Assembly: GCF_037038585.1 (NCBI RefSeq) | Contig: NC_092525.1 | Coordinates: forward strand, 23,766,867-23,830,866 | Reading direction: 5' to 3' | DNA: 64,000 nucleotides | Source of the DNA: Patagioenas fasciata | Lineage: Eukaryota > Chordata > Aves > Columbiformes > Columbidae | Shown here: piece by piece, positions 1,055 to 60,281 of the stretch | How positions within the stretch are numbered: position 1 is the first letter of the stretch | Layout: every line of letters begins with the position of its first letter | Notes under the pieces: model-generated | Database searches by the model: none | Told to the model about the DNA's origin: nothing | What the model saw: only the letters and a program-made list of their open reading frames with translations | Position numbers and translations under genes: made by a program

Positions 1055-1209
1055 TCACAGCCACCAGAATCTCACGTAGACGATCAACATGATAAAAAAC
1101 ACAGCTACGGCTGCAAGTTTGGCGTAAGTAGAGCGCATGTTCAGGTATTTTGCATCCTGACGGTATTTCTTGGACAAACTGGACAAGTTGTTGGCCTTGG
1201 AATCAAGAG
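1055..1209 (-). CDS. SEC22B: SEC22B coding exon 5 (residues 165-215): second half of SNARE motif and membrane anchor
   Basis: The last coding exon starts after a taacag acceptor with [10 protein letters not shown] and finishes the coiled-coil SNARE motif. It then encodes a 20-residue hydrophobic C-terminal anchor beginning [10 protein letters not shown] and ending RFWWL. The TGA stop is the complement of 1055-1057. The anchor would be inserted post-translationally, with the N terminus in the cytosol. Confidence 0.97.
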
Positions 1210-4200
1210 CTGTTAAAGGCAAAGGGGAGAGAAGTTAATCAAGGTTAACCCAGCCAGACGTTCTCCAAATGTTACATTAACTGTGCAAGTCTTTCCGGAG
1301 CAGCTGGAAGCACAGCAGTTTCACACGGCAGTACGCCCTGTGCCTTTCTGCAGTGCCCTAGTGCTTGTCTTGCTGGGGTGAGAGCTGCCCAAGCTGACGA
1401 GATGCTGGTCTCGCCTAAAAGCACCACTACCTGCCAGGTGCTTCAGGAGGCAACTGATCCAACTGAAACACCAACCACGTCCATTGTTTTTCTCAGGAGG
1501 CTCAGGGATTCACAAGCCTTTCCCTCCGGTGTGCTCTACCCACCCAACTGATGGAGAGGACAAGGAACCATATGCCAAATATCAGCCGTTCCCTGTACCT
1601 GAAAGCGCTTCTCCTCGCTGTAAGACTTCCTCAATGTTGGCCACCATAATCCTCTGCACATCTTGTAGCTCTGTGTTGATGGAGCCCAGGTTCCTCCTCG
1701 CCCGGCTATCAATGTAGAGCTTCTTGGTTTTCTGGATGTAGGTATCTGGAACAAGAGGGGGCAATCAGAGGGAACCTCACCTCACACAGAGCAGCCAGGC
1801 TGACAAAGGAGTGGGAGCACTGCTGAGACAGCCAGCAGGCTGCACATAAATATTCACTGGAGCGAGGCCAAGAGAAATATGAAGGAAGCAGGAAATACGA
1901 ATCGAAGGACATTTACCATTTCCTTACCACTTCTCTTGTTCTATTCTCCTGCTCAAAACACCCATTTCTCTAGTGCCAAAAAGAGGCTGAACTGTCAACT
2001 CCATAAGCAAAGCTAGAGAGGATCCTGTGGTTGCTGCTCCCTCCCCAGCAAGATGTTTCCTAACTAGGCACAAGGAGAAAGATCTCACCAAATTCAATGA
2101 AGGAATAGGGCCTGGAGACTGTTGGCACCTTCTTGCCATGCTGCTCATCAAACTCTGAATGTAAGTCTTCCAGATATGCAAAGGCCAGTTTCTTGGGGAA
2201 TGTAGCTTCACAGAGGACCAGATAACACACTCCTTTCTCAATGATGTAGCTAGAAGAACAGCAGACAGAGCATTGATTAATCAATTTTGCACCCATCTTA
2301 TCACACATCACCCTACATACCTTTATTCCTAGGAGGCAATGAGAACTGGGTACAGGGAATTCCAGTCTGCCATGTCTGGCTGAGGTACAAACCTTTCTAC
2401 AAAGTAATGGCTTAGTTTTCTTTACCCAAAATAAATGTTCTTGTAGCCTCGGACCCTATACCTGTGCCAACAGCCCTAAACTTTGATTTAACTGGAACAA
2501 AGGTTGGCCTGTGAATATCATTAGTTTAACAAAACACCAGTAACAAAAGAGTTGTAATTTTGGAATTTGCCATGGGTAAGTATGATTGCACTACCAGCTC
2601 TTCGGCTGCCATGTCAGGAGTTCCAAAACGTATGTTGAAACAGGAGACGCTCTTGCTTTGTGATGCTGTTTGGTTTGTTCTGCAGCTGAAGGTGCAGAGA
2701 GGTCCCTGTTCTCCCCCTCCCACCACCCCATCCCCATTGCATCTAATTTATGTTTCCTCACAGAGGCTTAGCGCTGACCTTGTTTCAGTGTGAGCTCCAG
2801 TGCCCCTTTCAGCACTGAGAACAGGGGCCTTTCATTATAACTCAGTTTAAAAGCCTATTGAAATAAGGAATAAGACAGAACCAATCTTGAGCTTATTTAG
2901 GCTTCACTTCAATTGCCTCCTGCTGCACTTTCCAAACTACATTTTCCTCCTCATTTGGCCAATAGGAAAACAAAGGCAACAATATATCCACCAAAACCAA
3001 GGGAGTGGAGACGGTAGATAGTCCTGCATACATTTTTGAATGTTTATCTATATTTTTCAGGGTGGAATTTGAATGCTGCTTTCATGTTGCTTTCCTTTGA
3101 CATTCTGCATAATGCCATTATGTAGCAGTCTAGTTAGCATAAAGATTAACAGTGCATTAAAGAATTGACCCAGTCTCAAGGGCACTGTAATTAAATAGGT
3201 AGCTTAAAATTTGCTTAATAGCCACATGAGGCTTACAAAATTACTTTCCCTTCACACTGTTTTTCCAGATATCTCAACAGGTCTAAGCCATTTGAATTAA
3301 CCAGCCTCAACTTATTTTCTGGGCTCTGGAGTATCCATCTCTCCTGCCTCTACATGGCCTGCATGCAAATCCCACCAGCCTTCAAATAACAACTGATCCA
3401 CCCCAACCAGAAGCAAGAAACTCCAGTTACTATAATCCATTCCATGAGTGGATCCCCAGAAGCTCATGCTGTTATTCTTTTGTACGTCCCTCAGCTTGGA
3501 CTGCACTAGTGTGTAAGATTAATCCTACAGCAATAAATCACGCCTCTGTTCTTCCCTTACTCTTGGAGACCTGCTGACAACTTGGAGCTTCTACAAATCA
3601 TCACCCATAGCTTGATTTAGCCACTGCCATGATCAGCAATATTTGAAAAAGTCTTTTGAAATAAGTAAAACTCATGTCAGACAGGAATTCTGGCAGTATT
3701 CCCCGAGAGCCAGAGCAGCGCACTCAAGATGAGAGCAGCCCAAGGAACATCCCCATCAGTACAGCTCTGTCGTCTTGGGCCAGCTGGTCCTGCTTGGAGC
3801 TCTCCAGCTGTATTTCCCACCTGCTTTTCTCCTGATGTGACATTAGACATGTTGGATTTAAAGCTGATCTGTCAGCACCAATGAGAGCAAGCACAACTCA
3901 TTCTGTCCCAGATAGAGATGATTTTGTCAACCTCAGTTCAACAGCAGCACAGAGTTCCTGCACAGTGGGGCTTCTCAGTTTTACACTCCACACTGACTGC
4001 TTGGCAGCACACGAGGGGCAGACCAGACATTGCCATTTGTCACTGCTAACTTCTGCACTCCAGATTTCCACGCACTGAGTGTAGCCAGCAGGTTTCTTAT
4101 AATTATCTTGCATAATTTTGAGAGAGCAGAGCTTTATCCTATTAACAGTGGCAAAGGTCAAAGGTTGTTTTCAACATGACAGGTAACAGCCAATTCAGCC

Positions 4201-7110
4201 ATTCACCAGCCAAAGGTCAGCCACTCACTGTGAGCAATGCAGGCTCCATCAGTGCTTCTGTACCTGCACAGCCACGTGCACTGAGTGCTGCCACTGAAAG
4301 GGTGACACAACTTTAAGTTTAAACATCACATTTGACAGAAATCACTTCAGCAGTTGCAGTTTAAGCTTCACACTTCAGCAAGACTAGACTCATCTCTGAA
4401 CTGATCAAGCTAAAAGCATTCAACACCACTCAGCAAGTTCAGCAATATCCTTAGCCATGCTTGTAACTCTCACACCACAAAACGCTCCGTCCTGGTTTGT
4501 GCTGCCCCTCAGCAGTCAGAGCTCTGATGTGGCAGAAAAAACAGATGTGCTGCATTAACAAACAGCACGGCCATCAGTCAGCATTATTTTAGACTAAATC
4601 TCAAACTCTCCCATTGCCTCCTCTTCCTGTACTGTTATCACAGTACTTTTCTAATCTGAAAGCGTTCTTTTTATATAGGTCCTGCCTTCATGTCCCACCT
4701 TAAAAGAGGCAGAGGTAGCACTTGAGTGCTGTGCAGGAGCAGCTGTCAATTCCTGTGGAACTTGTCTAGGGACTAACTCAACACAGAAGGAGAAACACTC
4801 CTTCCCCCGGCTATCTGTCCATCAGGTAACCTGCCTGTTTCTCCAAGACAGCTGTCAAAACATGAGCCTACCCAAGTCCTCCCACCTTGTCAGAACCAGT
4901 GACATTACAGCCACCATTAAGAGGCTTCAATCTCCTGGGCCCTGTAAGTGGCACAACTGCCCCAGACATTGCTGTGCTTGTGCTGTGAAAGCAACACAAG
5001 CAGGGATTTACAAGGATCTACACAGACTCTAACCCAAGGCTTCACTGCCAGTACCGTTACCCCACTGTAGTGCTACACAAACCTTTAAAAGCAGAGATTT
5101 AAAATTCTATAAAGTTTTAACTTCCAGAAAGATAATGATGCAGAGCACCACTTTGCAGTTAACCCTAGCACCAACACCCAAACAGGAGATAGCGATGGCC
5201 AGACTACTTTAATCAGAGCCATCCTCTGACCGCTATATATCCCTATCAAAAGCAAACAGAAGCCAAGAGGGGGAAAAAAAAAAAAAAAGATTAAAACAAC
5301 TCGTCACTGTTATGATACATAAGCCAACCACAAGAAAAGTTGCCCTCAAAACATCATGGCTTTTGCCAAAGACAGCCCTTCCAAAAAAACCCTGTTCATG
5401 TCTTTGCTTTTCACTGAATCTCTGGAAAAGGACTGGGCAGGAGAGTTGCTAAAGGGCTCTTGTTTTAGAAGGAGAGACCTCAAGCAATCCTTGCCCTGCA
5501 TCCAAGGCCATCTCCGACTCACACAGCCAGAAACCCACGCCCGGTCACCAGTGCTGGGGAATCAGAAGGGACCCCACTGCTGGCAGTGCAGCACTAGGGC
5601 CAAGCCTGTGAAAACTTGGCACATCCCTGGCAAAACTGCACAACTCTGCCTTGGTGATCTCGCATGGAAGCTGATCTCAGAAACCTCTAACACAGTTATT
5701 TCTGCCAATAGCAAAATCCTGACTCTTGGCAAGATCTTAGGCTTGATTAAATTCTCAGGCATTACTCTGCTAGGAAATCACATGTCATGTAAAGAAGCAT
5801 TTCCTTTTCTCAAACATAAGCTTACGCTCCTACCTTTCACTGACTGTCAGTTCTTCCTCCCTTGACTTGCCTTTCCAGTTCCCTTACTATTGGTTAGGGA
5901 GTTAGGGTGTCTGACCTGCACCCTCTGTGAGTTTTCATTATTTTATGTTCAAGTTCCTTTGTTAATGTGCTACTGGAAAAAACTAAAAGTGCTTTTAAGT
6001 TGAGAGTTTCCAAATAGTTTAGGAAGCGAGTTAAACACATATTTGGCAACAATAAGACTGAATCTACAAGATGAGAGAAAGCAGTTTGTCAGGTACTGAG
6101 GAAATAATAAAATAAAAAGAAAATGAGAGATGTTCCATGTGCTTATAATACACAAAGCTAGTGCACGAAAAAGTACATGCTCACGGAACACAGAGAGAGA
6201 AAAATCTTGTGCCAGACGAGCTCAGTGGTACTGCCAGAATGTTTTTACTAAGCACATCTCTTTTTAAAAAACACAAAACTCAGGAAGCACTAACGGTATC
6301 TTAGAGGGTGCAAACTAACGGGAAAACCTTACAGGGAAAAGAACCTACACTGTCTTCAGCAAAATCAGAACTATGAACCTCGCTGGAAAAGAAGTGTCAG
6401 GCACCAGTGCCAAGAAGTAACAACGCACACGCTCTTCCCTTCAAGCAGCTGTTACACGTCTGCAGCAGGGCTGACAGATGAATAACTCACCCTCTCTCAG
6501 GCAGTCCAGTTTCTAACTAACCCTCACCCCAACCCAAAAGCACCTTCGCTTATTTCCACAGCCCGTTCCCGCATCACCCCTCCAGATACTCACTGGAAAG
6601 CCATGGCTCCTGCCTCCAGCGTACACCTGGTGGGGGACTGCTCGTTCAGCTTGCGGAACAGCTGCTTTGCTTGGCTCTGGTACTGCTGCAGATCGCGGCC
6701 TGACTGAGAAGGGAGAACAGGCTATTGGGCGAGGCTGCTGCCAGAGAAACACCCCTTGCGGTCAGGTAGGGGGGCTCGGGGTGGGGGCGGGCAGGCAGGG
6801 GGGTTCCGGGGAGGCCGGGGCTCAGGTCGAGGAGGAGTTGCACAGAGGCGTCTCCACACCCGCCACCACCGGGCGGGCAAAGCTTGAGTAGGAGCCGCCT
6901 GACCTATGAGGAGGGAGTTTGTGTGGAGAGAGTTTGTGAGGAAGGGGTGTGAGGGTCCGGCTGGGCCGCCCCCCACGGACACACTGGGCCGGGCCCCCCC
7001 CCGCCTGCGCGCCCCCCGAGCGCGCGCGGCCCCACCTGCTCGTCCTCCTGCATGGAGGCGGCGAGCGGCAGCCCGTCCGCCACACGGGCGATCATGGTGA
7101 GCAGCACCAT
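1055..7110 (-). CDS. SEC22B: SEC22B, ER-Golgi R-SNARE with longin domain; complete 5-exon coding region
   Basis: SEC22B is a tail-anchored vesicle R-SNARE. It acts in ER-to-Golgi and Golgi-to-ER fusion with syntaxin-5 and syntaxin-18 class partners, and at ER contacts with phagosome and plasma membrane. The CDS joins 7036-7110, 6594-6703, 2089-2249, 1599-1745 and 1055-1209. These total 648 nt, or 215 residues plus stop, the usual family length. The longin domain covers about residues 1-120. The SNARE motif covers about 134-194, with the zero-layer arginine at R159 inside the motif LQRGEAL. A single transmembrane anchor spans 196-215 and ends RFWWL. The chosen ATG (complement of 7108-7110) has purine at -3 and G at +4, and its peptide begins [10 protein letters not shown] as in the family. 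All introns are GT-AG. There is no frameshift or internal stop, and the introns argue against a retrocopy. SEC22A and SEC22C lack this sequence. The gene shares a CpG-island promoter with the divergent PACS2. Confidence 0.98.
1599..1745 (-). CDS. SEC22B: SEC22B coding exon 4 (residues 116-164): first half of SNARE motif
   Basis: The exon contains the linker [17 protein letters not shown] and the first half of the SNARE helix. The zero-layer arginine R159 in LQRGEAL marks the protein as an R-SNARE. The exon ends in phase 1 within A165, before a gtacag donor. The linker has tyrosine at 118 where I recall phenylalanine in mammals, a conservative change. Confidence 0.97.
2089..2249 (-). CDS. SEC22B: SEC22B coding exon 3 (part of residue 62, residues 63-115, part of 116)
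   Basis: This 161-nt exon completes the longin fold. It begins [10 protein letters not shown] and runs through [17 protein letters not shown] to PYSFIEF, ending on the first base of D116 before a gtgaga donor. It is almost identical to the mammalian protein, which fits the strong constraint on the longin surface used for COPII capture and for folding back onto the SNARE motif. Confidence 0.97.
2250..6593 (-). other. SEC22B: SEC22B intron 2 (4.3 kb)
   Basis: This is the largest SEC22B intron. Read on the plus strand it is A- and C-rich, the complement of the T/G-rich composition seen in the PACS2 introns. A 15-nt A tract lies at 5274-5288. The longest open frame is antisense to SEC22B (5356-5865, 169 codons) and resembles no protein I know. 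I see no embedded gene or recognisable transposon. Confidence 0.85.
5274..5288 (+). repeat. poly-A tract (15 A)
   Basis: Fifteen A residues follow a short G run in SEC22B intron 2. On the SEC22B strand this is poly-T. No element body is recognisable beside it. Confidence 0.85.
6594..6703 (-). CDS. SEC22B: SEC22B coding exon 2 (residues 26-61 and part of 62)
   Basis: The exon opens in phase 0 after a ttctcag acceptor with [10 protein letters not shown] and closes on CA, the first two bases of H62, before a gtgagt donor. It encodes the middle of the longin domain, including the basic segment [10 protein letters not shown]. Relative to the human protein as remembered, one threonine near the end is replaced by alanine (GAMAF versus GAMTF). 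Confidence 0.97.
6769..6820 (+). other. G-run cluster with G-quadruplex potential
   Basis: Seven runs of three to six G residues, with one- to six-base loops, are packed into about 50 bp on the plus strand. The runs are at 6769-6774, 6778-6781, 6783-6787, 6789-6791, 6798-6803, 6808-6811 and 6817-6820. This fits the standard G4 pattern several times over. It lies in SEC22B intron 1, on the strand that serves as template for SEC22B transcription. Confidence 0.7.
7036..7110 (-). CDS. SEC22B: SEC22B coding exon 1 (residues 1-25)
   Basis: This exon encodes the start of the longin domain, from [10 protein letters not shown] to the acidic EDEQ. It ends in phase 0 before a gtgggg donor. Its 75 nt lie inside the CpG island. 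The following intron (6704-7035) is only 332 bp, G/C-rich and G4-prone. Confidence 0.97.
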
Positions 7111-7178
7111 CTCCGCGCTCCACTGCGGCCCGTCAGCCGCCTGGCCCCGTCAGCCGCCCGCCCCTGCCACGGAGCTGG

Positions 7179-7185
7179 CCGGAAG
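7179..7185 (+). promoter_or_regulatory. ETS-family-like site (CCGGAAG)
   Basis: A CCGGAAG core lies about 70 bp upstream of the SEC22B start codon. A second core, CTTCCGG in the opposite orientation, lies at 7231-7237. Such GABPA/ELK sites are typical of CpG-island housekeeping promoters. Assignment is by motif only. Confidence 0.45.
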
Positions 7186-7252
7186 CTGCCACCGGAACAT
7201 CCGGCCCAACAGCCTCCAGCAGTACGGGCGCTTCCGGCCGCGAGGCAATAAA

Positions 7253-7264
7253 CCGCCCGGGCGG
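7253..7264. promoter_or_regulatory. 12-bp perfect GC palindrome
   Basis: CCGCCCGGGCGG is its own reverse complement. It sits between the two genes, 143 bp upstream of the SEC22B ATG. It contains overlapping GC-box-like half sites in both directions. Its function is unknown. Confidence 0.5.
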
Positions 7265-7342
7265 CAACACGACCCATCACTGAGGGGCCGGAGCGGCGGG
7301 GAAGGAGCAGCAGAAACAGGCGCGGCTGCGTCCCCTTCCTGG

Positions 7343-7454
7343 CCACGCCCCCTCAACATGACCACACCCCTCGACATAACCACGCCCCCCGCACTGTAGC
7401 ACCGCCCACAATAAAACCGCACCCCTCAAACTTTAGCCCCTCCCAATCCCCTGG
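7343..7454. repeat. degenerate ~17-20 bp tandem array of CACCC/GC-box units
   Basis: Six imperfect units follow one another at 7343, 7362, 7380, 7400, 7417 and 7437. Each starts with a C-rich box such as CCACGCCCC, CCACACCCC or CCGCACCCC and ends with an A/T-containing spacer such as TCAACATGA, TCGACATAA or TCAAACTTTAG. The C-rich boxes match KLF/SP1 recognition. The array sits at the midpoint of the divergent promoter, so it may serve both genes. Confidence 0.65.
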
Positions 7455-7525
7455 CCCCGCCCCGCCGCGCCCCCCCTGCCCCCCCCCCCCGCCACACGTG
7501 ATCCCCCCCTGCCGGGGCGGGGCGG
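7455..7525. promoter_or_regulatory. GC boxes and CACGTG E-box upstream of PACS2
   Basis: SP1-type GC boxes lie at 7455-7466 (CCCCGCCCCGCC) and 7512-7525 (CCGGGGCGGGGCGG). A perfect CACGTG E-box lies at 7495-7500. They are 48-118 bp upstream of the PACS2 ATG, where the core promoter or 5' UTR would be. The E-box flanks (CA-CACGTG-AT) only partly match the TFEB/CLEAR consensus, so USF, MYC/MAX or TFE-family binding is possible. Confidence 0.55.
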
Positions 7526-7572
7526 CGGTGCAGGCGGCGGCGACCCGGTGGGCGCGCGCCAGGCCGGCAGCT

Positions 7573-60281
<52,709 letters not shown>

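What the first reader, a model, noticed from the sequence alone, without database searches (positions are those of the whole stretch)
7111..7572. SEC22B and PACS2 are head-to-head neighbours sharing one CpG-island promoter
Both start codons are certain from protein matches, and they diverge from a 462-bp interval with no TATA box. In human, SEC22B is on chromosome 1 and PACS2 on 14q32, so this linkage is either an ancestral sauropsid arrangement lost in mammals or a lineage-specific rearrangement. Both products work at ER membranes (SNARE fusion and contact sites; ER sorting and ER-mitochondria contacts), so shared control of the pair would be functionally interesting.
Basis: partly seen in the sequence, partly recalled or inferred. 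Interest (0 to 1): 0.7.

Follow-up and report, generated by a model that had tools for sequence, protein, structure and literature searches.

The report
Bird SEC22B–PACS2 head-to-head gene pair
Two intact genes for membrane-traffic proteins start 462 bases apart and point away from each other inside one CpG island; matching gene order in chicken suggests an old bird arrangement that human lacks, and nothing yet shows that the two genes are controlled together.

Summary
SEC22B (minus strand, ATG ending at 7110; complete 5-exon, 215-aa model, 98.1% identical to recalled human SEC22B) and PACS2 (plus strand, ATG at 7573; complete 24-exon, 904-aa model, 86.4% to recalled human PACS2, 62.4% to PACS1) diverge from 7111-7572, inside the only CpG island above 320 bp in the window (6841-7800), with no TATA match. 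Flanking DNA of the same contig gives HMGCS2(-) NOTCH2(-) SEC22B(-) | PACS2(+) MTA1(+) CRIP2(+) CRIP1(+). A human chromosome-1 block (recalled) therefore meets a 14q32.33 block in this interval; a BRF1 family match, next to BTBD6-PACS2 in mammals, is on another contig. A published chicken table places CRIP1, SEC22B and NOTCH2 in the same order on GGA8, with about 158 kb between CRIP1 and SEC22B, where PACS2, MTA1 and CRIP2 lie here. So an assembly join or a species-private fusion is unlikely. Whether mammals split the pair or sauropsids made it is unresolved: no outgroup could be searched. The likely mechanism is an ordinary TATA-less bidirectional promoter; co-regulation is untested. Side finding: a third PACS-family gene.

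The parts
7111..7572 (.). Interval between the two start codons; putative TATA-less CpG-island bidirectional promoter
   Evidence: 462 bp, GC 0.74, CpG o/e 0.85; no TATA[AT]A; one match in the genome, itself
6841..7800 (.). CpG island spanning both first exons
   Evidence: Sliding-window scan, GC 0.74, o/e 0.79; longest of 4 merged islands in the window
7036..7110 (-). SEC22B coding exon 1 (ATG 7110-7108)
   Evidence: Gene model with GT donor
6594..6703 (-). SEC22B exon 2
2089..2249 (-). SEC22B exon 3
1599..1745 (-). SEC22B exon 4
1055..1209 (-). SEC22B exon 5 with stop
7573..7700 (+). PACS2 coding exon 1 (ATG 7573)
   Evidence: Gene model
32706..60281 (+). PACS2 exons 2-18; exons 19-24 lie beyond the window end (last coding exon ends at C6:23845342)
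7179..7237 (.). ETS-type sites: CCGGAAG at 7179 (+) and 7231 (-), CGGAA core at 7193 (+)
   Evidence: CCGGAAR 2 seen vs 0.15 expected (fraction of shuffles at least as high 0.014), CGGAA 3 vs 0.62 (0.029); motif names recalled
7343..7472 (+). Five CCRCRCCC (KLF/SP-type) boxes, some of them in an 18-bp degenerate tandem repeat at 7343-7389
   Evidence: 5 seen vs 0.89 expected (fraction 0.0025)
7495..7500 (.). E-box CACGTG
   Evidence: not beyond chance (fraction 0.08)

Best explanation
The interval is the join between two synteny blocks, HMGCS2-NOTCH2-SEC22B and PACS2-MTA1-CRIP2-CRIP1, that lie on one chromosome in this genome (very probably a bird) and, by published gene positions, in chicken, but on separate chromosomes in human. 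Mechanistically it most likely works as an ordinary CpG-island bidirectional promoter: an open, TATA-less region with ETS- and SP/KLF-type sites from which two separate polymerase assemblies start transcription in opposite directions, SEC22B leftwards and PACS2 rightwards. Shown: gene identities, orientation, distance, island, absence of a TATA match, flanking gene order here. Supported indirectly: same arrangement in chicken. Inferred: divergent transcription starts inside the interval. Not shown: any coordinated regulation of the two genes.
For: Gene models intact on both sides, agreeing with Pfam and PDB. One island over both first exons, no TATA[AT]A, ETS- and KLF-type sites above shuffled expectation. 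Gene order from neighbouring DNA of the same contig. Chicken GGA8: CRIP1 near 4.006 Mb, SEC22B 4.164 Mb, NOTCH2 4.230-4.249 Mb (PMC7143801 Table 1); REG4, HMGCS2, NOTCH2 and SEC22B in one candidate list on chicken chr8 (PMC9412053 Table 2). SEC22B-CRIP1 distance about 158 kb in chicken and 197 kb here. Mammalian listing BRF1 BTBD6 PACS2 TEX22 MTA1 CRIP2 CRIP1 (human 14q32.33; cattle BTA21); BRF1 family match here on contig C5.
Against: No transcription-start, chromatin or expression data. PACS2 and MTA1 are not named in the two chicken papers (0 occurrences of mta1 and pacs in both); their place in the chicken gap is inferred from CRIP1. Motif excesses are modest, uncorrected for seven motifs tried, and from first-order Markov shuffles; SP boxes, CCAAT and E-box were not above chance and no YY1-type site lies in the interval. 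No cross-species alignment of the interval was possible. The human SEC22B-NOTCH2 position is recalled.
Confidence: 0.78

Rival explanations
1. Two independent unidirectional promoters happen to lie back to back in one CpG-rich stretch; the genes are neighbours by chromosome rearrangement and share no control elements.
For: In human each gene sits beside other genes, so each can do without the other's DNA (PACS2; SEC22B recalled). ETS-type sites cluster near SEC22B (7179-7237) while KLF-type boxes and the E-box lie nearer PACS2.
Against: Only 462 bp separate the ATGs and both 5' UTRs would have to fit inside, so the open regions can hardly be separate; one continuous island.
Confidence: 0.3
2. 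Origin, first option (mammal-side event): the pair is ancestral for amniotes, and the ancestor of mammals broke it at the shared promoter, moving PACS2-MTA1-CRIP2-CRIP1 next to BTBD6.
For: Shared by this genome and, by gene positions, chicken. A BRF1 match is on another contig here, so one exchange could separate the two states.
Against: Direction untested. Recalled paralogy (PACS1 beside KLC2 on 11q13, KLC1 on 14q32) hints weakly that PACS2 belonged to the 14q32 group first.
Confidence: 0.45
3. Origin, second option (sauropsid-side event): the mammalian order is ancestral and a translocation in the line to birds fused PACS2 to SEC22B, making a joint promoter from two.
For: Same gene-order contrast; recalled PACS1/KLC paralogy.
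Against: Direction untested; would need a break that left both genes working within 462 bp.
Confidence: 0.45
4. Assembly join or chimera.
For: Human has the genes on different chromosomes (SEC22B recalled).
Against: Matching chicken gene order and comparable spacing, no N in the 264-kb region around it, one unbroken island over the junction, interval found once.
Confidence: 0.02

Closest known systems
Divergently paired genes / CpG-island bidirectional promoters of vertebrates (e.g. PREPL-C2ORF34, SERPINI1-PDCD10)
   Same: Head-to-head genes under 1 kb apart, TATA-less, ETS-type sites; a common layout: each row of Table 2 in PMC2670823 sums to 1427 human pairs, of which 416 are fully conserved in chicken.
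   Different: In human the two genes are on different chromosomes (SEC22B recalled), so this is not a human pair; no start-site or reporter data here. The two example pairs were seen as titles and abstract starts only.
Chicken GGA8 NOTCH2-SEC22B-(gap)-CRIP1 region
   Same: Gene order agrees and spacing is comparable; HMGCS2, NOTCH2 and SEC22B are listed together.
   Different: PACS2 and MTA1 are not named in those papers; gene strands and the promoter interval could not be compared.
Human 14q32.33 BRF1-BTBD6-PACS2-TEX22-MTA1-CRIP2-CRIP1 and human 1p12 HMGCS2-NOTCH2-SEC22B (latter recalled)
   Same: PACS2-MTA1-CRIP2-CRIP1 order and, by recall, HMGCS2-NOTCH2-SEC22B linkage are kept.
   Different: The two blocks are unlinked in human and join here at 7111-7572; a BRF1 match is elsewhere. 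TEX22 was not looked for.

Membership tests
Bidirectional (divergent) promoter pair | Two protein genes head to head on opposite strands | tested here: met
   Gene models on both strands
Bidirectional (divergent) promoter pair | Transcription starts less than 1 kb apart | tested here: inconclusive
   ATGs are 462 bp apart, so starts would be nearer if they lie between; no start-site data, and an upstream non-coding first exon is not excluded
Bidirectional (divergent) promoter pair | CpG island spanning the interval | tested here: met
   6841-7800, GC 0.74, o/e 0.79
Bidirectional (divergent) promoter pair | No TATA box | tested here: met
   No TATA[AT]A in 6800-7900, both strands
Bidirectional (divergent) promoter pair | Activity in both directions | not testable with these tools
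   Needs CAGE, RNA-seq or a reporter assay
PACS2 orthologue (not PACS1 or a third paralogue) | Closer to human PACS2 than to PACS1, and MTA1-CRIP2-CRIP1 downstream | tested here: met
   86.4% vs 62.4% against recalled sequences; MTA1, CRIP2, CRIP1 downstream
SEC22B orthologue | Intact multi-exon gene next to NOTCH2, near-identical protein | tested here: met
   5 exons, 211 of 215 identical to recalled human; NOTCH2 next door; best PDB hits SEC22b
SEC22B orthologue | Single copy in the genome | not tested
   The search with exon 4 did not complete
Ancestral sauropsid linkage | Present in chicken | tested here: met
   Through published SNP tables only; CRIP1 stands in for PACS2-MTA1, which are not named
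Ancestral sauropsid linkage | Present in crocodile, turtle or lizard | not testable with these tools
   No vertebrate genome collection to search; the paper searches gave no such gene order among the papers listed

The most novel reading that the evidence does not exclude
An inter-chromosomal break in early amniote evolution fell inside a working bidirectional promoter, so that birds retain a co-regulated SEC22B-PACS2 unit for ER membrane contacts that mammals run as two unlinked genes; comparing the two classes would show what such sharing does.
Probability: 0.12. Interest if true: 0.5.

Novelty: new member of a known kind. Interest (0 to 1): 0.3.

Why it matters
It pins a chromosome-level difference between birds and mammals to a 462-bp interval that is also a probable promoter. 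That gives a natural comparison, linked in birds and unlinked in human, for asking whether divergent pairing of two ER-related genes has any regulatory effect. As an architecture it is ordinary.

Tried and rejected
Assembly join: disfavoured by chicken order and spacing, continuity of the island, absence of N and the single match of the interval. Fusion private to this species: disfavoured for the same reason; I first suspected it because I recalled MTA1 on chicken chromosome 5, while the chicken table puts CRIP1, the far end of the same block, on GGA8. PACS1 or third-PACS identity of the window gene: rejected. Retrocopy of SEC22B: rejected, five exons with introns. Telomere repeats as a fusion scar: no 12-base double repeat with up to one substitution in the 264-kb region. 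tRNA and Rfam (gathering threshold) scans of the window: no hit.

Paper searches (10 of 10 used, open-licence papers only): SEC22B + PACS2 + synteny, 0 papers; SEC22B + PACS2, 1 paper on stroke microRNAs, seen in the listing only; PACS2/chicken/GGA8/GGA5/chromosome 8/SEC22B, 30 of 67 listed, all 30 with 0 occurrences of PACS2, so 37 unseen; PACS2/synteny/MTA1/BRF1, 4 of 4 listed; NOTCH2/SEC22B/chicken/synteny, 20 of 29 listed, which gave the two chicken papers; MTA1/CRIP1/CRIP2/TMEM121/synteny/chicken, 4 of 4; bidirectional promoters, 10 of 57; CRIP1/NOTCH2/SEC22B/MTA1/HMGCS2/PACS2, 11 of 11; IgH locus/turtle/lizard, 6 of 6, nothing useful, one opened for passages without use (PMC10721905); PACS paralogues, 10 of 600 listed, none on PACS. 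Searches for the PHR-domain family of BTBD6 (PF08005) and for SEC22B copies did not complete.

Full report
WHAT IS THERE. The window is C6:23766867-23830866 of a 1.454-Gb, 359-contig genome; C6 is 56.1 Mb. The interval gave one match, itself, in a search that skips simple repeats and common words. SEC22B lies on the minus strand with five exons, a complete 215-aa frame and 211 of 215 residues identical to human. PACS2 lies on the plus strand with 24 exons, GT..AG at 23 of 23 introns, a complete 904-aa frame, 86.4% identity to human PACS2 and 62.4% to PACS1. Human sequences were recalled; database checks agree: Longin and Synaptobrevin domains, C2_PACS_N and Pacs-1 domains, PDB chains of SEC22b, and, for the first 323 residues of PACS2, a single PDB sequence, a PACS1 chain. 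The start codons flank exactly 7111-7572, and each is the first ATG of its open frame.

THE INTERVAL. It is 462 bp, 74% GC, CpG o/e 0.85; the surrounding island (6841-7800) covers both first exons and is the only one above 320 bp in the window. No TATA[AT]A on either strand in 6800-7900; two CCGGAAG ETS-type sites plus one further CGGAA core within 7179-7237, five CCRCRCCC boxes in 7343-7472, SP-type boxes, one CCAAT, one CACGTG. Against 2000 first-order Markov shuffles of the interval, CCGGAAR (2 vs 0.15, fraction 0.014), CGGAA (3 vs 0.62, 0.029) and CCRCRCCC (5 vs 0.89, 0.0025) exceed expectation; SP boxes (0.20), CCAAT (0.43) and E-box (0.08) do not, and no YY1-type site lies inside; seven motifs were tried without correction. 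Part of the CCRCRCCC array is a degenerate 18-bp tandem repeat, so its count is not independent.

THE NEIGHBOURHOOD. I fetched 100 kb on each side, then further stretches, three of 10 kb, one of 10 kb and two of 10 kb. Left of SEC22B is NOTCH2 on the minus strand: tblastn blocks from region position 7,998 upward (that output was cut after about 36.6 kb) and EGF-repeat and signal-peptide reading frames up to about 91.8 kb, recognised by eye. Left of NOTCH2 is HMGCS2, C6:23663852-23666767 (blocks of 72 and 86% identity, and two gapped blocks of 36 and 44%). Right of PACS2 come MTA1, CRIP2 and CRIP1, all on the plus strand. BRF1 gave no match in the 264-kb region, nor did BTBD6. The BRF1 family model PF07741 matches contig C5 near 63.28 Mb (2 matches, best E 1.1e-8; the gene there was not read further). 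In human (PMC11256661, one passage) and cattle (PMC11108207, one passage) the listed order is BRF1 BTBD6 PACS2 TEX22 MTA1 CRIP2 CRIP1. HMGCS2, NOTCH2 and SEC22B on human 1p12 is recalled. The interval is thus the join of a chromosome-1-type block and a 14q32-type block.

CHICKEN. PMC7143801 (passages, incl. Table 1; Gallus_gallus-5.0) lists GGA8 SNPs at 4,012,906 and 4,014,014 lying 7.01 and 8.12 kb from CRIP1, at 4,164,384 within SEC22B, and at 4,230,320 and 4,249,450 within NOTCH2. The growing distance puts CRIP1 near 4.006 Mb, so the order is CRIP1, about 158 kb, SEC22B, NOTCH2. Here SEC22B to CRIP1 is 197 kb and holds PACS2, MTA1 and CRIP2. PMC9412053 (passages, incl. Table 2) lists REG4, HMGCS2, NOTCH2 and SEC22B among the genes within 100 kb of one chromosome 8 marker. 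PACS2 and MTA1 are not named in either paper, so their place in chicken is an inference, though a strong one because CRIP1 is the far end of the same block.

INTERPRETATION. An assembly join and a species-private fusion are both disfavoured. One exchange could separate the bird from the mammal state, but its direction cannot be told without an outgroup, and no vertebrate collection was searchable. The mechanism is most likely a standard CpG-island bidirectional promoter. Such pairs are common: Table 2 of PMC2670823 sums to 1427 human pairs, 416 fully conserved in chicken (outline with abstract; one section; sum). Known pairs under joint NRF-2 (ETS) and YY1 control exist (PMC2713978, title and abstract start only). 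Co-regulation of SEC22B and PACS2 for a common ER purpose is speculation: nothing here tests it, and human has the genes on different chromosomes.

LIMITS. Start sites unmapped, interval not aligned to any second species, SEC22B copy number and BTBD6 position not obtained because the genome search was mostly unavailable (Tried and rejected). I found no paper on the pair; these cover open-licence papers only, and searches listed only 30 of 67 and 20 of 29 papers.

Noticed in passing
L025 (G000:C3:14366600-14376599), PACS exons at about C3:14371450-14376445: A third PACS-family locus: compact, tblastn blocks 26-77% identical (lowest where blocks bridge introns) and nearly equally distant from recalled human PACS1 and PACS2 (summed bits 587 and 605; window PACS2 611). 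Human is recalled to have only PACS1 and PACS2, so this may be a paralogue lost in mammals. Two stops fall in a block that seems to bridge introns; intactness was not modelled.
   Followed up: partly
L026 (G000:C46:895000-899999), minus strand: PACS exons on a 1.68-Mb contig (67% GC in the 5 kb read), closer to PACS1 (130 vs 94 bits over the blocks found), perhaps a fast-evolving bird PACS1 on a microchromosome.
   Followed up: partly
window 7343-7389: Degenerate 18-bp tandem repeat of CCACGCCC-type boxes, 2.5 copies, inside the interval.
   Followed up: no
window 7701-32705: PACS2 intron 1 is 25.0 kb; the next 16 introns, those between exons in the window, are 0.5-4.0 kb. It was not searched for nested genes.
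   Followed up: no
   Followed up: no
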